DNA of 64,000 nt from Microvelia longipes. Lineage: Eukaryota > Arthropoda > Insecta > Hemiptera > Veliidae. A model generated the notes under the pieces. It made no database searches, was not told the origin of the DNA, and saw nothing but the letters and a program-made list of their open reading frames with translations. The translations under genes and the position numbers were made by a program. Below, piece after piece: positions 1-54,161 of the stretch; the stretch's first letter is position 1; each line of letters opens with the position of its first letter. Location: assembly GCA_018340805.1 (NCBI GenBank), contig JACMZG010001913.1, forward strand, positions 19,732,079 to 19,796,078, given 5' to 3'.

Positions 1-1540
1 AACTAAATATAACCTACAATGAAGAACATATTTTGCCACCTCATTCAATGATATCAAAGTGATATTCCCAAAAACAAACAAAATTTAGAAAAGCAAAAGA
101 TTTTATTATTCAAGCTCAACTCTCTATAAATGTTAGATGAACAGCAAAAAAAAAACATAATTATGAGAAGTTTACACTAACAATCCAAGCCAATATTTGG
201 CTAGAAATTATTGCCAAAACTAATAGCCAAAACTAAAGAAAAAATATTTAAAAAACAAAAAAAAAGATGTTTTTATAAAAACATAAATTATATTAAATCT
301 ATTAAGAACAGCAAGTTTACTGCTAATTCTTTTTAATCATTTCAAAGAAATGTTGTTTTATTTGTTTTTTAAAACTCTCAAGTTACCCTAAAATGTGTTA
401 CATTTAGGAATATTATATTTTAACTGTGCAGTAGGTCTAGTAGAATATGTATGTTGATAAAGAATTTTATTAGTTGTAAACGTATGGAGTAAAATGGATT
501 TTTTAAATAAGTAAATAAACGGTAGGACTTGAAAATCTTTAAAACCGTCATCAGGAGGGTAATCTAACGGTTTTTGTAAACATAGTTTAATTATTTTTCG
601 AAGAATCAGCTACCGTCGATACTTGCTGTTGGATATAAATATCCCTGGACTGGTTTCGGCATAACGCCATCATCAGCAGGCGGGGCAACACTCGAGCTCT
701 CAACTAATAAAGTTAAATCAGTGATTAACTTCTAGTCTCAATGAGCACGACGAGCCCTCTGAAGATATAACCTTTAATTTTAACCTTTTTAATTTTAATT
801 ATTTTCTTTGTAATATTAATTACTATTATTACGGGAAGATACGATTTACCATATGCTATGATGCCATAACTAATTATTGATTCTACTAGAATATATTTTA
901 TACTAATATAAGCTTAGTATATGATTCTTCCATAAGCTTAGTATTTTATACTTCTTTGTATTTTCTTTTAGCTTCTTATTTTATACTTATATTAGCTTAG
1001 TCAGTTTTATTCTTCTTTAAGTTACCACAGATTTTAAGAAAAGTATTTATTTATAAAAAAAAAATTGAATTTATTATTTCATCAGAACAAACTGAGACAT
1101 TCTGTCTCTTACATCAAATGAACTATAATTATTTTTATTTCCAGACAGTCTGTAATGTAAAGTTTTTTGACTTGATTTTAGAGAGAAAAAGTAACTTTTT
1201 AACCTCTAGGGACGAAAAAGTTTCTTTCTATGATTGGGGTTAGAGCCCACAATACTTATAAGAGGAGATATCTTCCATTTTTCAGGGCAGTAACCTTTAA
1301 ACACAAAAAAATAAGGTTAAATGAAAAATTATGTTAAAATTTGAAGATAAAATCTTGTATGTAATTTTTACCTTAAATAATTGCCTGCGTCGGCTTTTCC
1401 TTACGAGTTAAATGCATAAATTTCTCTGCTTTACTCAAGTTAAATCCATTAGTTCCCTCGGAATTAGCTTATTGTTTGAGGAAACAGTAGTATTCTTTAC
1501 TCCCTTGGTGTATAAATTACTATTAATTATTAATTTTCAG
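1..1540. other. Non-coding stretch upstream of the first visible ACAP exon
   Basis: AT-rich sequence with no exon I can recognise. It is probably intron of the ACAP-like gene, because the first visible exon opens inside the ankyrin-repeat region and must follow others outside the window. Only the hammerhead-like motif near 654-676 and a polypyrimidine acceptor ending at 1540 stand out. No ArfGAP, PH or BAR exon was found. Confidence 0.5.
654..676 (-). ncRNA. Hammerhead-ribozyme-like core (Penelope-type motif)
   Basis: Read on the minus strand the segment has CTGATGA, one extra T, a GGC/GCC stem closed by a short loop, then GAAA. The same order, with one extra base before stem II, recurs at 9714, 19695, 22175, 32390 and 43682. 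Penelope-like retroelements are known to carry hammerhead motifs. Stems I and III are not evident here, so self-cleavage is not claimed. No inverted partner was found nearby, so this may be a single element end. Confidence 0.35.
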
Positions 1541-7600: not shown

Positions 7601-7684
7601 TGTCCCCGCGGAGACTCGAACGTGGTAGAGAATCTAACCTCTAATTAGAAGTCAGACACGCTACCACTGCGCCACGCTGACCCC
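7601..7684 (-). pseudogene. tRNA-Arg(TCT)-like sequence or SINE head
   Basis: On the minus strand it reads an A box TGGCGCAGTGGTAGCG, an anticodon region GACTTCTAATTAGAGG (TCT in the loop) and a B box GTTCGAGTCTCC. The order is tRNA-like, but the variable region is long and the acceptor and T stems pair poorly. An (AATA)n/(TA)n tract lies 20 bp from its 5' side. It is probably a tRNA-derived SINE head or a decayed tRNA. Confidence 0.5.
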
Positions 7685-12335: not shown

Positions 12336-12503
12336 AATTATAAACTTATCTTTTAAATAAATTTATTGTATTTTGCTTGTGTCTAAGGTGTTTTAAATAG
12401 CAGGTGGTATTTTAATTTTTTGGCTTGAATACTTTATTATGTTATAAAATATTTTCTTGCAATGACTATATCATAAAACTGGTTTAAAAATTATTATAGT
12501 GTA

Positions 12504-12666
12504 GCGTATGGCTAAAATCAGTTGACAGCGTGGGAAAATAGTGTTGAGACCAATGAGGTTAATCCAATTTGAAATGGTGGGTGTGGTTTAACATTCAGGA
12601 CTAACCTCATTGGCTCCCTGGTATTATTTTCCCACGCTGTCAACTGATTTTAGCCGTGTGTTACAG
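12504..12666. mobile_element. TA-flanked MITE, CTAAAATCAGTTGAC family, copy 1
   Basis: The terminal inverted repeats contain GGCTAAAATCAGTTGACAGC and GTGGGAAAATA, and extend inward to CCAATGAGGTTA against AACCTCATTGG. The element is flanked by TA (12502-12503 and 12667-12668). The TA target and TIRs suggest a Tc1/mariner-mobilised non-autonomous element. Related copies are at 23139, 49989, 54002, 54724 (half) and 60575. Confidence 0.8.
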
Positions 12667-12937
12667 TATAGTGAGTAAATAATTTTATTTATCAATTTAA
12701 TGTAATTTGTATTGTCATATTCCTCAATTAAGCTAATTTTCTGTTCTCTTTTGGTTTTAAAAATACATATTAACACTGAGAAACTTTCAAGTGTATATTT
12801 CAAGTTATATTTTGATACTACAGTAATCACTAACATAATAAAGTGATTTGGCTGTTTTAAATTTAAGATATACAAATAAAAGCCTTTTATTTGTTCCATA
12901 AAAGTTTAAACATCATTAATATTTTTGTAAAGAAAAG

Positions 12938-13224
12938 TTATTGATCATATATCATTTGATACTACCGAGTTTTGCAAAACATGAATAGTTTACACAATGT
13001 AATTGTGCGAGAGACGCCTAGAAAATATAACAAGCAAAATGCAATGCTACATCTGGGAACTGTACCATCATTATAAATTTGTCATCATTGATGGCTCAAA
13101 ATAATGTCATGTCCCACTCTGTTTTGTTCACACTCTGTTGGCGCCCTGATGAGTTAGACGTAACGAAACAGAGTGGGACATGACACGGTGTCTCTCGCAC
13201 AATTATATTGTGTTATTGATCATA
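12938..13224 (+). mobile_element. 263-bp element with 12-bp flanking repeats and a hammerhead core
   Basis: The element body is 12950-13212. It is flanked by the perfect direct repeat TTATTGATCATA (12938-12949 and 13213-13224). It opens with the 60-66-bp unit found alone at 41191 and 44205 (TATCATTTGATACTACC through GTGCGAGAG). It continues with about 90 bp of other sequence and a hammerhead-like hairpin (13106-13184), and closes with an inverted copy of CACAATNNAATTGTGCGAGAGAC. A 12-bp target duplication is longer than most DNA transposons make and fits target-primed retroposition. Confidence 0.7.
13106..13184 (+). ncRNA. Candidate hammerhead ribozyme, type III arrangement
   Basis: CTGATGA (13146-13152) is followed directly by a GTTA/TAAC stem II with GACG loop (13153-13164) and GAAAC (13165-13169), which is a canonical hammerhead core with no extra base. 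Positions 13106-13122 and 13168-13184 are perfect 17-bp complements and make a stem III whose inner pair is the required A15.1-U16.1, next to C-G. The base at position 17 would be U13123. The weak point is stem I: 13124-13145 ends in the palindrome GGCGCC, which has no loop and could pair only with a second molecule. The core looks real, but cleavage is unproven. Confidence 0.5.
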
Positions 13225-13246
13225 GTTCTTCTATGACCAACTGTCT

Positions 13247-13455
13247 TAATATATTTTTATTATATATAAATATTTATTATGATATTTTTATAATATATAA
13301 ATATTTATTATGATATTTTCATTATAAATACATATTTATTATGATATTTTTGTTATATATAAATATTTATTATGATATTTTTATTATAAATAAATATTTA
13401 TTATGATATTTTTATTAATATATAAATATTTCGTATGATATTTTTATGTAATTTT
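13247..13455. repeat. AT-rich minisatellite
   Basis: About six units of 35-40 bp, each containing AAATATTTATTATGATATTTT followed by ATTATAAA-like sequence. Confidence 0.85.
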
Positions 13456-15098
13456 ATTAATATTTTCATATCATCTCTAGCACAACTACTTTAGTTGTGC
13501 CAGTAACAAAATATGATCCATTTAATTCTCTTGCCTTTTATTCACAAAGTTCCTACTTATTTACTTAACTTATATCTTACTTAATTTTATTTATTCTTTT
13601 ATTTTTTCCTCTTATGCATTTATTCTTTTAAGTATTAGTGTTTTTTGTTTACTCTCTTGTTATATAATATATTAATTCTTCGATATTTGTACATTTCTAT
13701 TATTAATTTTTGCATTTATTACTTTTTATAGAATTTATTTCTTTGCCTTAATATACTTTATTTTAATATTATTTCTTTCTCTTCAACATTATATAATGGG
13801 TTAAAAGAGGTTTACTCTTATGTTGATAATTATATTTGTTCAAAGTAATTTTCAGAATACCTCTTAATTGTTTTATTACAACATTATGTATTTAAATGTT
13901 TATTACTTTGTTGATTATATTTTTATGATATTACCATGTTTTGTATTTGAAAATTATACTTTTTACATTATTAAATTAAATTATTAAAACATTATATGGA
14001 AATATAAATGTATAATGAGTCTATGTATTTTAGTATCTAAAATACACTTTATTGCCTAAAAATTCTAAATAAAATACTCTTAAGAAATACAAAAATATTG
14101 AGGTAAGAGAGGAAATGTTTTTACAAATTTTAAAGAAAATTACACTAAAGAAGTTGTCAGCATGGAAGGCGGAGTTCCGTGTGTTCTAGTATATATTCTT
14201 CGTCTCACACTTACTCTAATTAAGAAGCAACTCTGCACAAAGAGGCTTTTTTGCTTTGTGTCAAGAGCAACGGCCATCTAAGAGACTTAGCTTTGTGGTA
14301 GGAACTAAATAAGTGAATGAATAGAGTATTTGCATAATTTTTTTATTGCATTATGTTTAACAATTAGAATGAAAAATCTTAACTTTTGATGATACAGCAG
14401 AAAAATGAAAACTATATTTAAATATGTTCTTTTGGTGGGAAATGGGCCTCGACTGCTTGTGTGACATCAGACGTAAGAATACCGCCGTGTAGTACAATAT
14501 TCACTAGAGCAACACTCATAAAATTTTATTCTATACTGTCAAAAAGATTATTATGACACCTGTAGTCATCACGTTCCTTCGGCTTTGTATTACCTGGATC
14601 ACGGAATTGTTTTGTTTCAGTCTTCTTTACATTATATTGAACTGTAAGCAACTGTTGACCTTATAATATTTCTAACTAAAACTCCTATCTGTACCTTAAA
14701 CCACCCAACCTTTAGAACGTTCCGTTTTCACCCTACTCTCTCACCCATTCCCCCTCTCCTCTTCTTTAAATGCTTATTTCAACTATTTAAAATTAAATTA
14801 AATATTTTTTTACGGCTTAATATATTTTTTAAACACATTTAATCATTTTAGGAGCAAATTTTTTTTGAAAAATGCAAATACTCCATTGTTTTATTTTCTT
14901 ATTTCTTCTTTAAAATATATTGTAAGTTTTACTAATCAGTTTGTTCTTGCCTTATCTGGTGTAACCATTTAATAAATTTTGGTTATACTGTAATACAAAA
15001 ACTATGTAGAGATTTATTTTGGACCATAACACCAACACCATGTCTTTAAAAAAATATCTGTCGCTTTCAATGTTTGATTGACAATATTGCAGTGCTAT
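13456..15098. other. Non-coding intergenic DNA
   Basis: AT-rich, with no recognised gene. The GC-richer patch at 14160-14300 has no ORF, repeat partner or RNA fold I can support. Confidence 0.5.
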
Positions 15099-23091: not shown

Positions 23092-23138
23092 GTAAGTATA
23101 CCTCATTATTTCAACTCCCTATATTATCATTTACTATA

Positions 23139-23277
23139 GTATAACGCATGGTTATTATCAGTTGCCAGTGTGGGGAAAATACTGTGAGGGAGCCAATGAG
23201 AACAGTTTTCATAACAGGCAAACCTCATTGGTTCCTCAACATTATTTTCCCACGCTGTCAACTGATTATAACTACTA
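23139..23277. mobile_element. TA-flanked MITE, CTAAAATCAGTTGAC family, diverged copy
   Basis: The left end is GGTTATTATCAGTTGCCAG and the right end CCCACGCTGTCAACTGATTATA. The inner blocks CCAATGAGAAC and AACCTCATTGG match the family. It lies just inside the second BRMS1-like intron. Confidence 0.65.
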
Positions 23278-24960: not shown

Positions 24961-25500
24961 CTAGAGTGGTCTCCTCTCGGTTCAGGGAAGGGGTCACTGG
25001 TGGTTACCTAGTGACTGATCACAGGTTAAATGCCGTTGGTGGTTACCCAAGGGCAGAACAGCTAGACGGGGGGGATTCTAGTGGTTTCCCAGAATTTGAA
25101 CAATTGGACCAGGAGTGGTAGCCTCCTAGCATAGCGTGGGTTTGGACCTCCCTGGTAACGGGGGTCTGGACTTGGGGTCTTTGGTGTTCCGGCTAGTGGT
25201 GGCCTAGCCAGAGGTACTCGGTGCCGATAGTGGTTACCTACCGGTCGGTAGTTATTTTGGAACGCCATGAGTGGTGACCCCACAGCGGCACTGATCATTT
25301 CAGGACGTTCAGGAATGCCAAGAGTGGTTACCCCTTGGTCGTTGGTGAGGTTTGAGTACAGTGGTGTCCTGCGCTCGGTATGGGTTGGGGGAGCTAGTGT
25401 GGTATGTGGTGCCCATACCACTGATCCATTAGACCCGTGGGAGATAAGTGGTCACCTCACCTCGATTCCTTGTTTAAGCCTGGCATGTGGTTACCATACC
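24961..25500 (-). repeat. Array of about 13 GTGGTNACC motifs at ~40-bp spacing
   Basis: On the + strand AGTGGT or TGTGGT followed by TACC, CACC, GACC or close variants begins near 24966, 25000, 25038, 25081, 25115, 25196, 25230, 25270, 25324, 25361, 25405, 25447 and 25487. Intervals are mostly 34-44 bp, with one double-length interval. The sequence between motifs is not conserved, so this is not an ordinary tandem repeat. It lies downstream of the last ORF of the gypsy element. Confidence 0.7.
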
Positions 25501-26729
25501 TGAGATCTTTAATAGAAAAGGGGGGGTCCCTCTGGGATACGGGATCAGTCTCTGCTTCGGCGGTGGGGTAGGGAGGAGAAGTTTCCATCGGGAGCGCAGA
25601 TTCCTTATTCTCTGAAAGCTCTTGGTCAGGACTTGAAGCTGGAATGTCTGGAGGGTTGTCCTGGGGTGTGGGCTCTATCGGGCGAGGAAACTCACCGGGA
25701 CTGGACGACTTCTGGAGGACCGGAGTGGGAGTTGAGCTGGGTTGAAGTGGTTCGTGTTGGGCAGCTCGTTGGTGCTTAGGAGTTGCAAGCCGAATTCTTG
25801 GAAATACCCCCTCTGGGTTGGCTTTATTTTCCACCTTTTGAACATAAGCCAGGGCATCCTTTTTGCTCTTAAGTACCTTCTCCGTCTGGCTATCGACACT
25901 GCAGGTGCCCTCCACCGGGCCTTAAACACGGCGGCTGATTCGGGGTCCCACATCAGTTCCTGCTGTCCCGGTGAGTCTTCGGAAGACCCAATACCCGGTT
26001 TGGGTGGCGCAATCTCGCAATGACTTCCCATTTCTCCTTATCACCTTTCCTAGCTTGGAACACAAGAACCCCCCCCCCCTCTGGACGACCAACTGGGGTA
26101 CTCATTAGAGCAGGGATAAACGTTTCGCTACTGGAGCCAGGGATTCGCCTCATTGATCGCTGGCTCGATGAAGACGTTTCAGGTAAGTGACAGCGGAGAC
26201 TACTGAGGTCCGGCAACGACTGCCGACTCTGGGGGGAAACAACCGGTTGGTAAGGCTGGTAGGCCACCACCGGTCTTTCCCCCCTCGAGCGCTCGAGGGG
26301 GGAAAGTTCTTCCCTCGCTGGAGGCTTGGGTGGCAATGGGGGAACGCTAACAGGGACCAGCGTTCTTCCCTCGCCTCCCAGAGAGGGAGGCGAGGTCGGA
26401 GCCGAGGCTTGCACCTCCGCCCCATGTGGTCTAGCTGGCTGAGCCACAGTGGGCGGCCGCACTGGTCGACACCGCACTCTCCCCCCTGCCGCTCCCTGTG
26501 GAGCTAAAGCGTTGACCACACTCTGGCCTGAAGGGCCAGGGCGAGGCTGGACCTGCCTACCTTTAGACGTTACCTGAGGAGAATTAATAAACTGCGTCCT
26601 AGGGGCCCGTTGATTTAATTCAGAATACCTTCTCCTGATCTTCTCCAGATCAATCTTCTTCTCGTCCTTCGGCATATCGAAAGGGCAACAAAAACTAAAT
26701 TTACCACGAGAAAGAATAAAATTGAACAA
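25457..26729 (-). pseudogene. Proline-rich ORF downstream of gypsy pol, frame-broken
   Basis: Three overlapping open frames (26729-25953, 26031-25675, 25915-25457) appear to be one coding region broken twice. A ten-C run near 26070 and other short G/C runs are likely indel sites. The first frame has a basic Lys/Glu/Arg N-terminal stretch (MPKDEKKIDLEKIRRRYSE), then a long Pro/Ser/Arg-rich region with no globular signature. The last frame has a Lys-rich helix followed by a Pro/Ser/Glu-rich tail. It sits where env lies in errantiviruses, but shows no signal peptide, furin site or transmembrane segment, so I do not call it env. Function unknown. The upstream start could be the internal Met of MPKDEKK. 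Confidence 0.5.
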
Positions 26730-27174
26730 ACTATTGGCTAAGGGTGTGAATAGCTAGAGGGCTAAAGGGAGAATGAATAATTAACCCACTTAAAAGGTAA
26801 TTCATATTAATAGCGATAAGAAATATTAAACAAAACAAAACAAAGGTTCAAAAGGGTACAAGAGGCTGCTAGGTTACTCTTAGTAGAATGAATCAAAGTT
26901 CCATCAGGAGAATATGAAATAATCATTCATAAAATAAAGGAAAAAAAATAGTATTTAATAAATTAGGGGTTAAAGTTAAAAAGGTAACTAAATGTTAGTA
27001 AAGGGATGACTTTATACTATTAGGTATATTTATTTTATTATTAAGTGCACTTAATTATACTTTATATAATAATATTATTTATATTATCTTTATAGTTATA
27101 CATTAATTTAACTAGTTATTAAATTATTTTCAAAGTTAGTAACAACTTATTTAAAATTACAATTAATTAAAATT
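26730..27174. other. AT-rich spacer between pol and the Pro-rich ORF
   Basis: About 445 bp of low-complexity AT sequence inside an otherwise GC-richer element. No ORF or repeat was seen. It may contain a splice site or promoter for the downstream ORF, but none can be singled out. Confidence 0.5.
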
Positions 27175-29870
27175 TCAAATCAAATTAACAACAAATACAG
27201 TTCGGTCATTCGGACTTGTTAGATCATCAAAAGCTACCTTAACGACACGGTCATCTTCAACTTCAATCTCATAGACATTCGGGCCTAAACGGGTTTTCAC
27301 AGAGTAAGGGCCTTTCCACTTAGGGGCAAATCCTGCATGGACACCTCTAACCTTATCACTCAAGGTGTGATTGCGCATCATGACTTGCGTTCCTATCTTA
27401 AAGCCTCTATTAACTGGGGTCGGATCTCTCTCATCTTCGTGCGTCGGAATTAACCGCCAATCACCAGGTTGAGATATCTTCCGGCCTAACATAACCTCCG
27501 CGGGGCTTTTTCCCATATTTAAATTTGTTCTTTGTCGCAACTGATAGAGAATTTTCGTAATCGCTTCCTCCCAGCGATTATGATTCTCTTCTTCTAGGGC
27601 AATTCGAATTCCTTTCTTTATCTCTTGATTCCGTCGCTCTGTTGGGTTGGTAGGAGGGTGATACACGGGAGTTGTCCATATCTCACAGCCCCATTTCTTA
27701 CCGGCCTCCGTCCACTGCTTAGATGAGAATTGCGGACCATTATCACTTAAAATGACACGGGGATATCCGAAGCGGGTGAATATCTCTTTCTCCATCACAT
27801 TAGCAATTTTCGTCGAGGTAGCAGTACTCATAGGGAATGCTTCAACCCATCGGCTGTGAAGATCCGAATAAACCAGCAGCATGGTTTTCCCTGTTCGAGA
27901 TCTAGGATAAGGGCCCATTAGATCTACGGCTCCGACTTCCCAGAGTCGATAATTTTTTCTTCGCATCATCGGAGCACGAGGTCTTCCAGTAAGAGGTTTG
28001 TATCCCAGGCAGACTCGACAAGAACGGACATATTTTCGTATGTCACGGGTCATTCCGGGCCAATACATTCTAGCACGAATGGTCGTACAGGTCTCTTCGT
28101 ATCCAGGATGCCCAATTAATGAATGATCATGATATCTCGCCATTATAGACTTCTGAAGATGCTGGGGGGCGCAAACACGAAGATTGTCTCCTTCGGCGTA
28201 ATATAAAACTCCGTCGGCTAAGGAGAAATTCTTCTTCTGGCGAGCCCAAGCTCGGCGTTGTCGAGCTGTTCGGGGTCGGTGCGTTTCGCGTATCCATGAT
28301 ATCTTCTGAGCAATGGAAGTATCTTGATTCTGTTCAGTATGAATCTTCTGGATAAGCTCATCAGGAGCTTCCTCGGTATGGTTTACACACATACGTTCTG
28401 CCCTCTCCTCTGTCGGTGGGGTGTAGACATCTATCATCTCACTATCTGACTCTATCGGGTCTCTAGATAACGCGTCTGCAGCCTGATTAAGCTTCCCGGG
28501 TCTATGTTCCAGAGAAAAGTCAAATGCCATCAATGCTAGGAACCAACGATGCACCTTACTGTTGTGGTCCTTAGTTCGAGTCATCCAGGTCAACGCGCTA
28601 TTGTCGGTGATGAGGTTAAATTTCCGACCTTCTAACATGTGGCGAAATTTCCCAACTGCCCAGACGATAGCTAACGCCTCTCTCTCCAGTGCTGTGTAGC
28701 GTCGCTCGGTATCATTTAGTTTACGACTCCCAAAGCTTAAAACGTGTTTCCGATCAGTCTCTTGGTACAGGACGGCTCCTAACCCAACTTCTGACGCATC
28801 CGTTTGCAAATATAAGTCCAGCCCCGGATCATAATGACATAAACTTGGAGCTTCCATCAGCTTGACTTTAAGTTTTTGAAAGGCCTCTTCTTCCGTCGCT
28901 GTCCACTTCCATCGCTTCTTGGTTTTTGTTAACTCCGATAACGGGGTTGCTACTTCCGCAAAATGGCTTACAAAATCTCCGTACCATTGACATAAACCTA
29001 GGAATTGACGAACGGTCTTTCTATTAGTGGGAGTAGGAAAGTCGGCGATCGCTTGAAGTTTTTCCGTTTGCGTGGAGATACCCTCAGGCGTAATTTGATG
29101 TCCCTGGAACTCGATTTCTTGAGTGGCAATGACACATTTTTCTACATTGCAGGTCAATCGGTGGCGCTCTAAACGTTCTAATACCAAATTTACATGTAGC
29201 ATATGTTCTTTGAACGTTTTACTATGAATGATTAGATCGTCCAGGTAAGCTTCGACGAAATCCCCGAGATAACCTCTTAAGACCTCACCCATAAGCCTCT
29301 GAAACGTCATAGGACTGTTCTTTAATCCGAAGGGCATTACGATAAATTCGTAGAGCCCTAGAGAGGTAGGAAATGCTGTCAAGGGTCTAGAGTCATCCTT
29401 AAGCTCCACTTGCCAGTATCCCGATTTCAAATCCAACTTGATGTAATATTTCGACCCGTTAAACTTTCCCATGTGGTGATGTAAATTGGGCATGGGATAT
29501 GCATCATCCTGCGTAATCTCGTTAATTTGTTGATAGTTAACACAAAACCGATATGCGCCATCCTTCTTCCTGACCAAGACGACGGGACTAGCCCAGGGAG
29601 ATTTGCTGGGTTGGATCATGCCGTTCGCTTCCATCTCTCGGACTTGTTGACTGATAGCCGCTTTCTTCTCTTCGTTGTATAGATAAGGGGATAATCTTCG
29701 AGGTGCCACGTCCTTAATCTTGATTTCATGAAAGATAGTTCGCGTCCTTCCTACTCCTTTGAAACACGAAGCGTGCGCATCTATAACTTTCTTAACCTGA
29801 GCGCGTTCTCCTTCCGAAAGTTTTGTCGCAATAACTTCTTCAGGCGCTGCCGTTTCTATATAGGAAGTTT
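27175..29870 (-). CDS. pol: Ty3/gypsy pol: reverse transcriptase, RNase H and integrase
   Basis: The open frame covers at least 844 residues from the first Met (29709). It continues upstream without a stop to about 29870, as expected if it is reached by frameshift from protease. Domains in order are RT (QPSKSPWASPVVLVRKKDG, LDLKSGYWQ, and catalytic YLDD in EAYLDDLIIHS), RNase H (TDASEVGLGAVLY, the Glu of LEREALAIVWA, ITDNSALTWM), and integrase with an HHCC finger (GHPGYEE...CRVC). Integrase also shows DDE residues in AVDLMGPYP, LSDNGPQFSS and PTERRNQEIKK, and a C-terminal GPY/F-type WKGPYSVKTRLGP. All key residues are present and no stop interrupts them, so this is the best-preserved part of the element. 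It copies element RNA to DNA and integrates it. Confidence 0.95.
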
Positions 29871-30344
29871 CTATATTTCTATATAGGGGATGGTATGGCT
29901 AGTTCTCCAACTAACAGTCACACGTTCAATCACTCCTATCGAGCTGTTCTTACTACCGTAATCAATAACCGCCGCATAGTCTCTCAACCACGGGTTTCCT
30001 AGCACTAAGTCATAAGTGGCATCATGTAGCACTTCGGCTTCTGTGTAGAAAACTTGGTCATGAATAACTAGGTTTACCGCAACTCGGCCACTGGTGTGAC
30101 CCCAAGCAGATTTCGTACCCAATATAACATTCTTTCGAAGGTCGCTAACTTGATGTACTTCGGGGTGAGCGGCTAAGGTCTCACTAATGAAGGATACCGT
30201 AGCTTGAGTATCGATAAGGGCTTGGTATTCTGCACCATCTCGTAAACGAAAGCTTATCCCAGGACAAGGATTGCCGTCTGACTTTAAGTGGAGGAGCTTC
30301 TCAGTAAGTTGAGGATTCGACGGAGCTCCATCGTGAATCCTCAC
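29871..30344 (-). pseudogene. Ty3/gypsy aspartic protease region, altered active site
   Basis: A 157-codon frame contains YQALIDTQATVSFIS, where gypsy proteases normally have D-T/S-G-A; here Gly is replaced by Gln. The later VLGNPWLRDYAAVIDY matches the conserved ILG.PWL......I.. end of retropepsins, so the family call is firm. The frame closes at TAG 29871, at a short duplicated TTTCTATATAGG block (29850-29885), and pol resumes in another frame just beyond. The duplication may have broken a continuous frame, or may sit at a frameshift site. The Gln substitution predicts an inactive protease unless it is a sequence error. Confidence 0.75.
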
Positions 30345-30454
30345 TTCCGGTTTCCCGCAGTTTTATCGACTGTGTCGTCTCCATTGCCTTTCTGTTCCTT
30401 AGCGATGGGTCTACCGTAACGTTGCCACGGGATTTCTTTGGATAACGGACCCCG

Positions 30455-31474
30455 CTAATTACCGTTGTTGTTGTTGTTCCGATTGCTCGTACTAGGAAAA
30501 TTCGGTCTACTCGCTCCGGTCGTATCATTATTTGGTAGGAGAACTATCGTCTTCGGTTCCGAAGGTTTGACACTAGCCGCGTCTGCATTCTGGTCCTCTT
30601 CTATCTTACGGGCTAAAGCAATAAACTCCGAAGCATTTCTGGCCGCTCCCAGCCTTAACAGTTGTCGCAAATTAGGCGCTACCAGTTCTATAACCTGATT
30701 CATGAACGTACGATCTGTGTCTGTAGGATATAAGCGACGAAACACTGCTACCTTCTCTTGTAGAAATTTCTCGACTTTCTCCCCCTGTTTTTGTCGGTCT
30801 CCGTGAAAGGCTGCGCGCAACTTTGTTAACACAGAATGAGAGGCGTATCGTGTGGTCAGGAATTCGCTGAACTCTTCCCAGATAGCATCATTGCGGCATT
30901 GGGTTTCCCACTCTTGTCGAACCGTCGGTCCTAAATATTTACAGGCCACTTCTACCCAGCACGACTGAGGTACCCGATTCTCTATTAAGCCTCTTTTCCA
31001 TTTGGCCAGGTGCTTGTATGGATCCTCCCAGGTTTGCCCCTTGAATGGTGCCATCACATAATCTAGAGTAGCTGGGTTCCATTTAGAGGTCTGAGGGGTG
31101 CCGCTACCGCTACTTTCCAGCCGCGTCACTAGACTCCTGATTAGGGCTCGGTTCTCTGCTGCTTCCCGCACAAAGGTGCTAATTAACTGGGATAAATCTA
31201 CGTAATTTCTGCGATTCTCCTGCACTGAGCACTTCGCTGTTATCACCGGCTCTACTTCGTCAAAAACTGTAGCATCGTTTTGCGGTACCGATACAGGTGC
31301 TCCCTGCATCCCAGATGATTCTCCTATCTCGATTGACGGTGCGCCGTTCGGAGGAGCATTATCCACTTCGCTATCATCAAATCTTGCGTCCCCTATTTCA
31401 CCCGGACACCAAAAACGATACTTCCCGGGATCGTGACCTTCTTGCCTCATCGCTTCCTCTAAACGAATAAACAA
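30455..31474 (-). CDS. gag: Ty3/gypsy Gag (capsid)
   Basis: The frame opens after a TGA just inside the terminal repeat. The first ATG is at 31450 (AMRQEGHDPG...). The central region, with APFKGQTWEDPYKHLAKWKR, then CKYLGPTVRQEWE, then FLTTRYA and EKVEKFLQEKVAVFRRLYP, is the capsid fold of retrotransposon Gag (PF03732-type pattern). The C-terminus is Ser/Asn-rich (SNRNNNNNGN) and no CCHC zinc knuckle is visible in this frame or in the overlapping one to 30301. Gag would package element RNA in a cytoplasmic particle. Frame breaks separate it from protease. Confidence 0.85.
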   Translation of the reverse strand: MFIRLEEAMRQEGHDPGKYRFWCPGEIGDARFDDSEVDNAPPNGAPSIEIGESSGMQGAPVSVPQNDATVFDEVEPVITAKCSVQENRRNYVDLSQLISTFVREAAENRALIRSLVTRLESSGSGTPQTSKWNPATLDYVMAPFKGQTWEDPYKHLAKWKRGLIENRVPQSCWVEVACKYLGPTVRQEWETQCRNDAIWEEFSEFLTTRYASHSVLTKLRAAFHGDRQKQGEKVEKFLQEKVAVFRRLYPTDTDRTFMNQVIELVAPNLRQLLRLGAARNASEFIALARKIEEDQNADAASVKPSEPKTIVLLPNNDTTGASRPNFPSTSNRNNNNNGN

Positions 31475-31481
31475 ATCATTT

Positions 31482-31513
31482 GAGTGTCAACAACCGGGGG
31501 GGACATTTGTCCA
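31482..31513 (-). repeat. Terminal direct repeat of the gypsy element, 5' side
   Basis: It matches 24802-24832. It abuts the gag frame with no room for a normal 5' UTR or tRNA primer site, which suggests that the 5' LTR and leader have been lost or recombined. Confidence 0.55.
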
Positions 31514-32665: not shown

Positions 32666-32673
32666 TATTATAA

Positions 32674-32742
32674 TTGTGCGAGAGATATTGTGTTAAGTAT
32701 TAATGTTTTGCAAAACACGGTAGTATCAAATTATATATGTTC
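32674..32742 (-). mobile_element. Micro-hairpin unit, rearranged copy
   Basis: It contains TTGTGCGAGAG, then in opposite sense ATATTGTGTTAAG, GTTTTGCAAAAC and GGTAGTATCAAAT. These are the same blocks as the 60-66-bp unit at 41191 and 44205, but the end carrying GCGAGAG is inverted relative to the rest. It sits right after the palindrome at 32315. Confidence 0.5.
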
Positions 32743-34066: not shown

Positions 34067-36654
34067 GATATTGTATTTAATACGATCCGCGGATTTAGAA
34101 GTGTGTGTGTAAATGTACTAAAACTTGATAATTAACCTCGTGTTTTGTTTGTACTCTAACTATAGTGAAATAGAATAAAAAGTGAACCGATGTCCCTTAT
34201 AAACTATTAAAAGATCAATTTTTCTACACATTGTAAAACTAGCCACCACTCTGTAATTGACAGAAGAGTCAATACTCATAATAAATAATAAATTAGTAAT
34301 GTTTTTTGTGGACAAAAAAATACAATTTTTTTATGTTTTTGTTATTATTGTTTTGTACTAATGTGATGTAAAAATGAGGGTGTAGAGACAGTGTTCCGAC
34401 TCCCACCTATATCCCCATGGGTGAGATGGACCAGCTTTCAATCAAGGGGGAAGCTAGTTCAACTACTGTGCTGCAAATCAGTGCCACTTGTTTCTCTATC
34501 CTGCTTTGTTATTATATTTGTTGATAAGCAACGGTCAACAATGAGTGCCTTTTTTAAACATTTCTAAAATCCTCTGAATGACTTTTTAACTTTGGCCATT
34601 TCTAAAAAATAAAACCCAGGTTTAAAAGAGAAGCAGCACATTTTCAAAAATATGTCTTTATCGCTTAAAAAGTTAAGTCATCTGAGGTAATTAATGTTCA
34701 TTTTTGAAGTCCTGTCCTAATCTTATAAACATAGGAAGTTTGAGCAACTTTATTATTTACTTAAGCTTTAAGAAATGACTCCATTATAGAATCCCACTTC
34801 ACTTTTTTTGTTCCGATTTCTGTCACACAAAGTAACCTCCATGAATGACAGGCAATATTACATTGGCACTTCCTCTACAATTACATTAGTCGCTAATAGT
34901 AGCCTTGGTAGCCAACATTTTCTTCTTTTGACTTACGCAGCTATAACGAAAACCCAAACTACATTAGTGAAGTCACTTGTGAATTGTATTCCACTATAAC
35001 TCAAACCTTTGTCATAACTTCTCTCCATTCGGAGTTAAGTTTGAAATAACACCAAAGACCTAGGGCAAAATCTTAGGGCCAAACGACTAAAATCTTAATT
35101 TAGCCTTAAAAACAGAAATTGTTATATCAACTGATAATAACCAAATTAGAAATAATTCCACTCAAGGTAGTGTGTGATGGAAAATAATTTCAAACTAGAA
35201 GGTAGCACAGCTATTTCTTCCCCTTCTTTGACCAGAGAGGCCAATTATACTTTATATCCAGACCAAAGGCCTTATTAAATGCATTGGGTGTCATTAACAC
35301 AAAGATAATGTTGACAAAGTATTCATTCTCCCATCCTCCTTAAAACAAATCCTAATTACAACATTACTATAGTGTCAAACATATGCTCATTGATTTGATG
35401 AAACACAAGGGTACTTGCACTTGGACATAGCATTTGCATTGATTCTAACGATTTTATTAGTTATGTTGACATTGTTTTTAAGAAGAAAATTAAGACATTT
35501 TAGTGATAAATTATATGATTAGATAAAGAAGTAACAATGTAGATCAAGGTGAAAATTCCCTCTGACTCTTGGCAATTAATTATTGCCAATAGTCTAATCA
35601 ATGAACGGGGTTTTTTGTGAAGTTTTAGATAGTTAAAATTTTATGAAGCCCCGTAACTTAGTATCACAGCTGCAATGAAAAAAATTGAAAATAATAAAAT
35701 AAAATATATGACCGCTTTGTGAGTTTTTTGGACAAATTTATCGTTCTCAGGAGACTTTTTTTTCTATTGGTATTAGAAGAAAATTGAAGAGGAAACATTT
35801 ATAGAACAGTTTGTCTTCTTTCTTTTTTATCTCTTTATTAATTGTTGGGTGCATGGCTGTTTCAAAGATACAGTTGAAATTCTATTTTCACTTTATAAGA
35901 AAAATTTACCAGGCCAGTGCTTTGCGGCTATAATAAACTGAGAGCTGTAATTTAGGGTAAAAACTTGTTCTGTAGTTGACTACATCATATCTAAGAATCA
36001 TTATGTTTGATCGATTTGCTGTTGAGTTATGTTAGTGAATGGGGAATAATTTTGCACCAAAGTGACAATTTTTTGTTTGGTTATGTTTTAAAAAAATGAA
36101 AATATGGTTAATTTTTAATAACTAAAATCATTATTTAACAGTTTTAAATAGAGAGTATACCAATAGAATCTTATTTTTAGACTATTTACTTAGCTTCAAA
36201 CTTTATTTAAAGGAATTTTTGGTATTTTGTATTCCTACCTAGATATTAACAAAAGCATAAGAACGGGACACGTTTTGGTCTACTACGAGCACAACTATGA
36301 TGTATAGTTAGAGGACCTTTTTTTTGTGGGGGGGATATCCCTAAAAATGTCCAAAAAGATTCCCACAGTAAAATTTTAACTGTTTAAAACATGTATTTTT
36401 ATGAATGTTATATTTCTTTGTTAAATTTTGAAAAATACATCTTTCTTTATTCAAATGCCTTTATTTGATAAACAAAAATTATAAAAATTACAATATAACA
36501 AAGAAATGTAAATATTTTATAAGGCTATCTCTCTATGATAAAGCTTGTGCTGCAGAGAGGGCTTTGTCCAATTCAAATTTTTCTCAAGTTTTTAACTCGA
36601 GCTTGCAATTTTTTATTGTTACATTTTTTGTTGGTAGGTTCAGAGAGATAAATC
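34067..36654. other. Intergenic DNA and 5' side of the YTHDC1-like gene
   Basis: AT-rich. No coding exon was recognised. A T-rich tract ending TTTTTGTTGGTAG at about 36638 is a good splice acceptor just before the YTH ORF, so an upstream non-coding exon is likely within this stretch, but it could not be placed. Confidence 0.5.
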
Positions 36655-37785
36655 ATGTCTGATTCTGATAGTGATTATGAGACTATAAAAGAAAAAATTG
36701 ATTTAAAAGATTTGAGAGTTGTTGATGAAGCTGGTGTGGACTCTGATCAAGATGGTAATGGACATTTAGACTATGATACATTGAGTGAGGCAAGTGGATC
36801 TAGTCGGGGTACGAGAAGAAGACGTAGGTTCAAAGAACGAACTTATATACCGTCAAATCATCAACATATTCAAGCTAGAAATTATCGATCACGCTCACCT
36901 ATTCATAAATCAAGGCATTTGAAAAGAACTCATGCTTCACTAGAAAAATATGGTCATTATGAAAAATCATTAGAATATTTGTTTAGAGGTGCACGATTCT
37001 TCATGATGAAGTCAGGTAATCCTGAAAATATTGCTTTGTCCAAAATTAAAGGAGTTTGGTCAACATTGCCTATCAATGAGAACAAATTAAACCAAGCTGT
37101 TAAGATGACTAAAAATATAATATTGATATTTTCAGTTAAAGAGAGTATGAAATTTAGTGGGTTTGCGCGATTAGCTGGTGAATCTAGGAGAGACACGTCT
37201 CCTGTTAATTGGGTGTTGCCTCCTAACATCAACCCGGAGGATTTAGGCGGTGTTTTCAAAGTAGATTGGATCTGCCGGAAAGAGTTGTCATTTTTAGAAA
37301 CTGCTCATTTAAAAAATCCATGGAATTTGAATAAACCTGTTAAGATAGGAAGAGATGGTCAGGAGATCGAACCTAGTATCGGTAGGAAACTTTGCTTGTT
37401 ATTTCCTAAAGATCATCACATGGATTTGGAGAAGGTTTTGAAGAGAAGTAAAAACCACATTATTAGCAGTTCATCCTCAAGTAGTGAAAAACGGTCTAGA
37501 GTTCAATCTTCTGTTAGTGTTGCGCCTTCAGGTGTCCAACATTATCCATCACCTGTTGCTCATGCGATGACTCCTAGAGAATACTACCCAGGCCCCCCTG
37601 TTAGGTATCCCATGCCTTACTATATGGTGCCTGCATATGAACCCATCCCACCTCCAAGGTACTATGAGGGTGTGCCTCTCCCCCCTGATCCATCCAAGCA
37701 TTATCCTGAATATTTTTATCCGAGAGAAAGAGTACCATTCTTTCATGCAAGACCATTCCCTCCACCACCAGGTCTGAGGAGATAG
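36655..37785 (+). CDS. YTHDC1-like: YTH-domain m6A reader, YTHDC1/YT521-B-like
   Basis: A single uninterrupted 376-residue frame starts [14 protein letters not shown] and has an acidic N-terminus, an RRRRRFKER basic patch (55-62) and the YTH domain at about 105-265. The aromatic cage is complete: Trp135 (KGVWSTLP), Trp186 (NWVLPP) and Leu197 ([10 protein letters not shown]). They are spaced 51 and 11 residues apart, exactly as Trp377, Trp428 and Leu439 in human YTHDC1, and Ser136 follows the first Trp. The C-terminus is a Ser run followed by a Pro/Tyr-rich tail. YTHDC1 binds m6A in nuclear RNA and guides splicing and export. The protein is shorter than known insect relatives, chiefly in the N-terminus. 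An acceptor at ~36638 suggests a spliced 5' UTR. The lack of introns in the coding part could also mean an expressed retrocopy. Confidence 0.9.
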
Positions 37786-41176: not shown

Positions 41177-41270
41177 TATGAAACATTAATCTCTCGCACA
41201 ATTATATTGTGTCAACTTCATTCATGTTTTGCAAAACTCGGTAGTATCAAATGATATATGAAACATTAAT
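41177..41270 (-). mobile_element. 66-bp micro-hairpin unit with 14-bp target duplication
   Basis: The body 41191-41256 (read on the minus strand TATCATTTGATACTACC ... GTGCGAGAG) is flanked by the perfect direct repeat TATGAAACATTAAT at 41177-41190 and 41257-41270. The body holds three small palindromes: TATCA-TT-TGATA, GTTTTGCAAAAC and CACAAT-ATA-ATTGTG. It has no coding capacity. Confidence 0.8.
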
Positions 41271-44030: not shown

Positions 44031-44187
44031 TTATGGTTATGCTCTATTAGCTTAGGGCCTATTAGCTTAATTCAAAGACATTTTCCTAATATTCTCCTTA
44101 AGGAACAAGGAAAATATGTCTTTGAATACGGGCCTAAATATCAATGGATTAGCAAAAACTAAAATCTTACGGACTGCCTGGACCAAG

Positions 44188-44282
44188 GGGGATTCTTAAG
44201 TATTTATCATTTGATACTACCGAGTTTTGCTAAACATGAATAGTTGACACAATATAGTTGTGCGAGGGGGACTCTTAAATAT
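44188..44282 (+). mobile_element. 62-bp micro-hairpin unit with 16-bp imperfect target duplication
   Basis: The body 44205-44266 reads TATCATTTGATACTACCGAG ... TAGTTGTGCGAG. The flanks are GGGGATTCTTAAGTAT (44188-44203) and GGGGACTCTTAAATAT (44267-44282), 14 of 16 identical. It is the same unit as 41191-41256 in the opposite orientation, and two substitutions in the flanks suggest an older insertion. Confidence 0.75.
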
Positions 44283-45373: not shown

Positions 45374-45982
45374 TTATAGACATGTTTTTGGTTGTTTGAT
45401 GTATCTTAGTACACGTTTCGGCGCTTGCCAGTGCTCCTCTCCATAGCAGTTGTTGAATTGGCTTAAATAGCTGACTGAGAATGCTATGTCTGGTCGCGTG
45501 GCTACTGCGAGGTACATAAGGGCTCCAATGAGGTTTTGATATGGTATGTCTCTGTTAGTGATTTCTGATTTTTTCTCTAATACCAGTCCTACTTCCATCG
45601 GTGTCGCTGCCCCTTTGCAGTCTTCCATGTTGTACTTTTTGAGAATTTCATTTATGTAGTTAATTTGATTCGCCGAGATATTATTTTCTTTTAAGTTAAA
45701 TTCGATTCCTAAACAATATTTTAGTTCTCCTATGTCTCTTAGGTCGAAGTGTTCTCTTAGCTTTTGTTTTGTTTCAGTTAGAACGGCTTCTTTCTTAGAT
45801 GCTAGGATCAGGTCATCTACATACACTGATACAATGACTTTCTCTCCCCCTATCTCTGCCACGTACAAACATGGATCAGCTCCTGAGGGTTTGAATCCTA
45901 TTTTTTTCAGTGTTTCGTCCAGTTTATGTTCCATTCTCCTTCCGGCTTGTTTCAGTCCATATAGAGCTCGTTTTATAAACAT
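45374..45982 (-). pseudogene. Copia reverse transcriptase, catalytic part
   Basis: It begins RALYGLKQAGR, contains the catalytic YVDD in VIVSVYVDDLILASKK, then GELKYCLGIEF and ends with LMYLAVATRPDIAFSVSYLS and HWQAPKRVLRYIK. This is the classic copia RT order. It starts in a different frame from the N-terminal RT fragment at 45973-46356. Confidence 0.9.
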
Positions 45983-46356
45983 ACCTTATTTTTCTCTCCT
46001 TTCCTTAGTTCTCCTAACATTTCTTTTGCTTTGTTTAGAGTTGTATCGTCTTCATTCATACTTTCTTCCAAAATTATTTCTAGTAAATATTTTTCTAAAT
46101 ATGGTGGTACTTTCATGTAAATTTCTAAATCTTCCTCTATGACTCCATTTAAATATGCTGTAGTGATGTCAAGTTGGTGTAATTTCATGTTTTCTTCTGC
46201 CGCAAGTCCTAATAGTAGTCGTATAGTGCTCAGTTTTACTGGTGCGAATGTTTCGTTGTATTCTACATTAGGTTGCTGTTTAAATCCTCTCGCTACTAGT
46301 CGAGCTTTCTTTCTCTCTAATGTACCATCAGAATTGTATTTGTTTTTAAGTATCAT
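45973..46356 (-). pseudogene. Copia reverse transcriptase, N-terminal part
   Basis: It contains ERKKARLVARGFKQ, YNETFAPVKLSTIRLLL and LDITTAYLNGVIEED, the first RT motifs of copia pol, including the Asp of the LD.TAYLNG block. After GVIEED it carries an unusual acidic/basic insert (about 45 residues) before the next frame. That insert is longer than the usual YM.QP.G linker. Confidence 0.88.
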
Positions 46357-49955: not shown

Positions 49956-49988
49956 CAAACGCACAATTTATATTTGATTGTTTTAGTA

Positions 49989-50151
49989 CGACACACGGCT
50001 AAAATCAGTTGACAGAGCGGGAAATAGTGTTGAGAAACCAATAAGGTTGGCTTGTTTTGAAATTGGTGGGCGTGGTTTAATATCCAGGAATAACCTCATT
50101 AGCTTCCTCGCATTATTTTCCCACGCTGTCGACTGATTTTAGCCCTGTTCG
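49989..50151. mobile_element. TA-flanked MITE, CTAAAATCAGTTGAC family, copy
   Basis: The ends are CGACACACGGCTAAAATCAG and the complement CTGATTTTAGCC...TTCG, with TA on each side (49987-49988, 50152-50153). It is 163 bp, the same length as the copy at 12504. Confidence 0.8.
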
Positions 50152-53794: not shown

Positions 53795-54001
53795 CCTAGA
53801 GAGAGACCGAACTTCTCCCCACTCCCCTACAACTTCTATCGGAGCACATATTTATAACCCAAAGAGACTAAAACTATGACGTCACCAATTTACCGTTAGG
53901 GCACCTAGCTACCCAAGGAATGATAAGAGCTGTTGTATCCTCCCTCTAATAGTTTTAGTCTCTTTGTTTGCTTCCAATTCCCCCTCCCCTACACCCCTCA
54001 C

Positions 54002-54161
54002 ACTAGGCTAAAATTAGGTAACAGTGCAGGAAAATAATGCGAGGTAGCCAATGAGTTTAGTCCTGGATGTTAAACCACACCCTCAATTTCAAATCAGGCC
54101 AACCTTATTGGTTCCTCAAAGCTATTTTCCCTCGCTGTCAACTGATTTTAGCCGTGTGTCG
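54002..54161. mobile_element. TA-flanked MITE, CTAAAATCAGTTGAC family, copy
   Basis: The right end is CTGTCAACTGATTTTAGCCGTG...GTCG followed by TA. The left end (GGCTAAAATTAGGTAACAG) is more diverged. A right-half-only relative lies at 54724-54806. Confidence 0.7.

What the first reader, a model, noticed from the sequence alone, without database searches (positions are those of the whole stretch)
41177..41270. A 60-66-bp mobile unit made of three micro-hairpins with 12-16-bp target duplications
The same tiny unit occurs at 12950 (as the start of a longer element), 41191-41256 and 44205-44266, and rearranged at 32674. Three insertions have direct repeats of 12 (perfect), 14 (perfect) and 16 (14/16) bp flanking them precisely. 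The unit contains three successive palindromes (TATCA-TT-TGATA, GTTTTGCAAAAC, CACAAT-ATA-ATTGTG) joined by conserved CTACCGA and ending GCGAGAG. It is too small for a Pol III SINE or an ordinary MITE, yet the long variable target duplications suggest target-primed reverse transcription. I know of no described element with this layout.
Basis: partly seen in the sequence, partly recalled or inferred. Interest (0 to 1): 0.85.

Follow-up and report, generated by a model that had tools for sequence, protein, structure and literature searches.

The report
Hammerhead-bearing Penelope hitchhiker, not micro-transposon
The 66-base "mobile unit" is the cut-short end of a roughly 316-base parasitic repeat carrying a self-cutting RNA motif, which appears to be copied into an insect genome by Penelope-type retrotransposon machinery that starts once at each of two fixed points.

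Summary
In detail: copies at 12950, 41190 and 44205 begin at the same base and carry long flanking direct repeats. The reading as a free-standing 66-bp element does not: in the 665-Mb host genome all 39 other scored copies run past it (to m75 or further) into a ~316-bp monomer, often tandem, with a hammerhead ribozyme core. Target duplications are real: 24 of 56 insertions score 9 or more, against 0.6% of shuffled flank pairs. Of 114 start-type ends 61 lie at m1-6 and 38 around m43. The 42 bp between match the "tail" of Penelope-like elements, whose enzyme starts at two nearby internal sites and extends both target strands. Two-armed insertions tend to use one site of each kind: 18 of 20 classifiable in the sample not selected for ends, and 11 of 11 two-ended Penelope copies of the same genome. 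I read this as a non-autonomous, Penelope-mobilised, retrozyme-like family. Its hammerhead is unusual: stem I is a loopless palindrome (GGCGCC), so a full core can form only between two copies. No partner Penelope with matching ends was found in 50 loci, and ribozyme activity is untested. New variant of a known kind.

The parts
12950..13213 (+). Copy A: two-armed insertion. First arm m1 to about m178 (12950-13128); second arm inverted, about m214 to m43 (13126-13213), with an internal deletion
   Evidence: blastn to monomer
12937..12949 (.). Target duplication of copy A, left; right copy 13212-13224, 13/13 identical
12950..12991 (+). Tail of copy A (42 bp, m1-m42), start site T1 at 12950, start site T2 at 12992
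   Evidence: start-site list
13132..13174 (+). Hammerhead ribozyme core in the second arm: ACTCTGTT / GGCGCC / CTGATGA - stem II - GAAACAGAGT; stem I has loop length 0
   Evidence: Rfam RF00008, 34.4 bits, E 7.7e-6, below gathering score 48.5
41190..41256 (-). Copy B (the finding): single-armed insertion m1 to about m65, tail 41213-41256 (44 bp)
41177..41190 (.). Target duplication of copy B, left; right copy 41257-41270, 14/14 identical
44205..44266 (+). Copy C: single-armed insertion m1 to about m62, tail 44205-44246 (42 bp)
44186..44203 (.). Target duplication of copy C, left; right copy 44265-44282, 16/18 identical
32669..32735 (-). Copy D: possible minimal two-armed insertion, T2-side stub 32669-32685 (+) joined to T1 arm m51 to m1 (32685-32735, -)
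   Evidence: called T1/truncated by the script; no target duplication found

Best explanation
The unit is the 3'-end region of a non-autonomous, hammerhead-bearing retroelement (316-bp monomer, often tandem) mobilised in trans by a Penelope-like element (PLE). RNA is read in the hammerhead sense, m316 to m1. At a staggered AT-rich target cut, reverse transcription starts inside the multimeric or circular RNA at T1 (m1) on one target strand and, 42 nt away at a stem-loop, at T2 (about m43) on the other. The two cDNAs run toward each other, are 5'-truncated and are joined head to head; gap filling leaves duplications of mostly 10-16 bp. When only one strand is extended far, a truncated stub such as the 66-bp unit remains. 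Shown: common start points, duplications, inverted arms, tandem monomers, hammerhead core, coexisting GIY-YIG PLEs with the same end pattern. Inferred: that a PLE enzyme does it, that each strand is primed separately, and that the RNA is multimeric or circular.
For: Copies extend into a 315/316-bp monomer, tandem in L010, L019, L035, L037. Of 114 start-type ends 61 lie at m1-6, 38 at m35-51, 15 elsewhere; the 12 truncation ends are scattered from m51 to m315. Duplications: 24 of 56 insertions score 9 or more against 0.6% of 1120 mismatched flank pairs. Anole PLE in vitro (PMC11167929, parts 1-2 of 4 read): two adjacent internal start sites in an AC-rich stem-loop, the interval equal to the 30-40 bp genomic tail, both target strands extended, hammerhead upstream. 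Same genome: 63 GIY-YIG matches, an ORF with RVT_1 plus GIY-YIG, and in 11 of 11 two-ended PLE copies one tailed and one tailless end (BLAST extents read by eye), with a duplication score of 9 or more in 10 of 11 against 8 of 110 mismatched pairs, 11 or more in 7 of 11 against 0 of 110. End pairing in the monomer family: 18 T1/T2, 1 T1/T1, 1 T2/T2 of 20; binomial tail 2e-4 if starts were independent and equal, with the PLEs 29 of 31, 2e-7 (tests chosen after seeing the data).
Against: No PLE among 50 fetched GIY-YIG loci (of 63 matches) was seen to share the tail or stem-loop; monomer hits near L083, L087, L099, L107, L114 and L129 look like separate insertions. In vitro the anole PLE showed no start-site difference between strands. 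T1 flanks prefer TA (32 of 54), which matches the RNA beside T1, unlike the anole case. The genome search scores only the best candidates, so counts are no census; in sample 1, 22 of 40 clusters were neither T1/T2 nor one-armed T1 (8 T1/other, 2 T1/T1, 2 T2/other, 1 other/other, 9 cut by the locus end).
Confidence: 0.78

Rival explanations
1. Inverted arms arise by self-priming (snap-back) of one cDNA or on an antisense template, as proposed for rotifer Penelope by Arkhipova et al. 2013, rather than by priming on both target strands.
For: Arms of one insertion share variants more than arms of different insertions (7.6% against 1.7% of variants, 35 insertions, 13 others skipped; L008 has 4 shared and 0 private). 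Some junctions look like short complementary annealing, e.g. TCAGG/CCTGA in L055 and L069. PMC3846280 passages.
Against: A snap-back copy should end where the first strand began, not 42 nt inside it, so T1/T2 pairing is left unexplained. The anole PLE extends both strands.
Confidence: 0.17
2. Free-standing 66-bp SINE-like unit.
For: Copies B and C are that length with duplications.
Against: 39 of 39 other scored copies reach m75 or further; the only tRNA gene found in the window is elsewhere.
Confidence: 0.02
3. The element is mobilised by a LINE, not a PLE.
For: Variable duplications and 5' truncation fit LINE target priming; inverted arms occur in L1 twin priming (recalled).
Against: Two fixed starts 42 bp apart, hammerhead, tandem copies and head-to-head inverted copies are PLE traits and are seen in this genome's PLEs. 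LINEs of this genome were not searched.
Confidence: 0.1
4. The hammerhead is a decayed relic; the loopless stem I makes it inactive and irrelevant to spread.
For: Below the Rfam gathering score in the window and in the 14 loci scanned; stem I has zero loop; junction points are spread, so cleavage does not set cDNA ends.
Against: Catalytic core intact in array copies; 23 of 30 monomers found by a pattern that itself asks for near-intact surroundings keep GGCGCC exactly; a paired two-copy hammerhead is predicted at -27.7 kcal/mol against 2 x -11.2 for monomers, although a plain duplex scores -32.0.
Confidence: 0.4
5. Fold-back DNA transposon (MITE).
For: Inverted repeats.
Against: The two ends differ (m1 against m43), duplications vary in length, arms vary in length and number of monomers.
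Confidence: 0.01

Closest known systems
Penelope-like elements (EN+), Penelope/Poseidon
   Same: 30-40 bp optional tail, two internal reverse-transcription starts, hammerhead upstream, inverted terminal copies, variable duplications (PMC11167929 parts 1-2; PMC3846280 passages)
   Different: No ORF; monomer only 316 bp; no end match to the PLE loci examined; hammerhead stem I, not stem III, is the loopless palindrome
Metazoan non-LTR retrozymes (Cervera and de la Pena 2020, PMC7229834, passages)
   Same: Non-coding, about 170-400 nt, tandem, GC below 50% (42%), hammerhead, duplications longer than 4 bp; those authors name PLEs as a strong candidate mover
   Different: Hammerhead is type III in topology, not type I; circular RNA not shown here
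Dimeric hammerheads of newt, avocado sunblotch viroid and related repeats
   Same: A short helix that becomes complete only between two copies (PMC6155905 and PMC3088659, passages)
   Different: There the shared helix is III; here it would be I

Membership tests
Penelope-like element (autonomous) | ORF with RT and GIY-YIG domains | tested here: not met
   Longest open stretch in a tripled monomer is 56 codons; hence only 'moved by', not 'is', a PLE
Penelope-like element (end structure) | Two start sites 30-42 bp apart, tail at one end | tested here: met
   Starts at m1-6 (61) and m35-51 (38) of 114
Penelope-like element (end structure) | Inverted terminal copies and variable target duplications | tested here: met
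Non-autonomous PLE | Shared end sequence with an autonomous partner | tested here: not met
   50 of 63 GIY-YIG loci examined, no shared end seen; 13 loci not fetched, PLEs lacking GIY-YIG not searched
Metazoan retrozyme | Small non-coding tandem repeats of low GC | tested here: met
   316 bp, 42% GC, tandem
Metazoan retrozyme | Type I hammerhead | tested here: not met
   The hammerhead family matched is RF00008 (type III), 31-37 bits, below gathering score
Metazoan retrozyme | Circular RNA in vivo | not testable with these tools
   No RNA data
SINE | Pol III promoter or tRNA-like head | tested here: inconclusive
   Only a tRNA-Arg at 7601-7681 found; box motifs not scored

The most novel reading that the evidence does not exclude
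Penelope-type complexes assign the two target strands to two different start sites on the RNA, so that two-ended insertions, autonomous or hitchhiking, have one tailed and one tailless end; and this family carries a hammerhead whose loopless palindromic stem I lets it cut only when two copies pair, which would spare monomeric circles.
Probability: 0.4. Interest if true: 0.75.

Novelty: new variant of a known kind. Interest (0 to 1): 0.6.

Why it matters
How animal retrozymes move, and why Penelope insertions are inverted head to head, are left open in the papers read. This family gives end-structure evidence that retrozyme-like repeats use Penelope machinery, and the one-tail pattern offers a simple alternative to antisense self-priming that can be tested in vitro and by census in any PLE-rich genome.

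Tried and rejected
Rejected: chance; free-standing unit; structured small RNA from the unit. The exact-pattern hits L001 and L002 in bacterial contigs show no likeness beyond the 19-mer; no viral-contig hit. I first thought cDNA ends cluster at the hammerhead cleavage site; that came from the query, which itself spans that junction, and is not seen in the sample. Five viral-contig hits to a 17-mer of the ribozyme were not followed up. Arm-variant sharing does not separate two-strand priming from self-priming. A PDB sequence search with a PLE protein found nothing. Literature: searches; one search listed 10 titles of 6,914 partial matches, none on retrozymes. PMC8557442 is not held, and the 2017 study of dimeric PLE hammerheads is recalled, not seen, so novelty of the loopless stem I is not established.

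By-eye reading: L053, L062 and L073 also look like T1/T2, which would make 21 of the 23 two-start insertions of sample 2; the main text uses the script's 18 of 20. L045 (T1/T1) is a palindrome including its flanks and L022 (T1/T1) is ambiguous. Dropped as duplicates before the counts: L060, L063, L072, L074, L050 (the window copy), L003, and one of each 3-kb/1-kb pair of the same place. One search also left out loci with an end too near the locus border. The display shows for L036 and L038 another arm than the scored one; the count of 39 rests.

Full report
What was checked. The window's unit copies are real and their flanking repeats are perfect or nearly so. The window lies in a held 665-Mb genome. 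A YTHDC1-like ORF at 36658-37782 has insect proteins among its best hits, the first named one from Laodelphax, so the host is probably a hemipteran; this is an inference.

What the unit is part of. One search scored 40 of 250 candidates; I fetched the 39 besides the window copy. In all 39 the monomer match that covers the scored place reaches m75 or further. In L019 and other loci the sequence repeats head to tail with a 315-316 bp period. A second query from copy A scored 40 of 2646 candidates. The true number of copies is not known; 65 sources (64 loci and the window) entered the end census.

Anatomy. In unit orientation m1 is the T of TATCATTTG; T2 is at m43 (ACACAATATAATTGTG stem-loop); the hammerhead lies on the opposite strand with its cleavage site at m201. 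Rfam gives Hammerhead_3 at 31-37 bits, below its gathering score of 48.5, E 7.7e-6 for the window copy in a 381-base search; no family reaches gathering score in the window or in 14 loci. The alignment shows stem I as GGC/GCC with loop 0. Of 30 monomers found in 12 loci by a pattern asking for near-intact surroundings, 23 keep GGCGCC exactly; in a looser set of 98 core hits, which includes fold-back artefacts, 60 do. A hairpin cannot form without a loop, so a complete core needs two copies; energy estimates allow but do not favour this over a plain duplex.

Insertions. Of 56 insertions with both flanks, 24 have a direct-repeat score of 9 or more, against 0.6% of 1120 mismatched flank pairs; of the 21 scoring 10 or more, 18 have a best length of 10-16 bp. 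Ends were classed by script as starts or truncations. Sample 1 (query m1-66, so T1 is expected) gave 40 clusters: 11 T1/T2, 2 T1/T1, 7 T1/truncated, 8 T1/other, 2 T2/other, 1 other/other, 9 with an end outside the locus. Sample 2 (query m63-178 plus the inverted arm, not selecting T1) gave 25: 18 T1/T2, 1 T1/T1, 1 T2/T2, 3 with one other end, 2 T2/truncated. The window has 1 T1/T2 and 3 called T1/truncated, of which copy D may be two-armed.

Comparison with Penelope. Frangieh et al. 2024 (PMC11167929, parts 1 and 2 of 4 read) report two adjacent internal start sites for an anole PLE, the interval matching the genomic tail, and extension of both target strands, with no start-site difference between strands. 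Arkhipova et al. [quoted passage not shown] So a tail on one inverted copy was known; the one-and-one pairing as a rule, and its reading as one start site per strand, I did not find in the passages read. In this genome 63 GIY-YIG matches were found among 150 scored candidates; one fetched ORF carries RVT_1 and GIY-YIG above cut-off. With seven hammerhead-to-tail queries, 11 of the 50 fetched loci show two opposite ends; all 11 have one long and one short end by BLAST extent, and 10 have a duplication score of 9 or more against 8 of 110 mismatched pairs; one of the 10 (L089) lies in AT repeats.

Limits. No partner PLE was identified. The samples are top-scoring copies. Retrozyme status lacks RNA evidence, and the type I hammerhead that marks metazoan retrozymes in PMC7229834 (passages) is not met.

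Noticed in passing
L085-L124 (GIY-YIG loci): In several PLE families the tail holds a complement to a block just upstream of the short end (e.g. GGACTG...CAGTCC), suggesting a conserved RNA fold around the two start sites (read by eye).
   Followed up: no
L085, L086, L106 and others: PLE hammerhead-like motifs here have a short palindrome after GAA (e.g. AGCCGGUU), consistent with dimer-type hammerheads; no Rfam hammerhead match at E 0.1 in the PLE loci scanned.
   Followed up: partly
window 25457-31486: Ty3-like LTR retrotransposon with long open frames on the minus strand, in a GC-richer stretch (named by eye).
   Followed up: no
window 45374-45985: Ty1/copia-like reverse transcriptase fragment, minus strand (named by eye).
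   Followed up: no
window 36652-37785: Long uninterrupted YTHDC1-like frame, possibly a retrocopy.
   Followed up: partly
window 12490-12665, 23130-23277, 49977-50148, 54000-54157: Diverged inverted-repeat (MITE-like) family ending in ...CAGTTGACAGCGTGGGAAA.
   Followed up: no
window 13246-13448 and 13474-13499: 31-bp AT-rich tandem repeat next to copy A, followed by a diverged stem-loop resembling T2.
   Followed up: no
window about 630-690, minus strand: CTGATGA...GCCGAAAC hammerhead-like core motif; no Rfam match at gathering score.
   Followed up: no
L045: Monomer insertion at the centre of a palindrome that includes its flanks.
   Followed up: no
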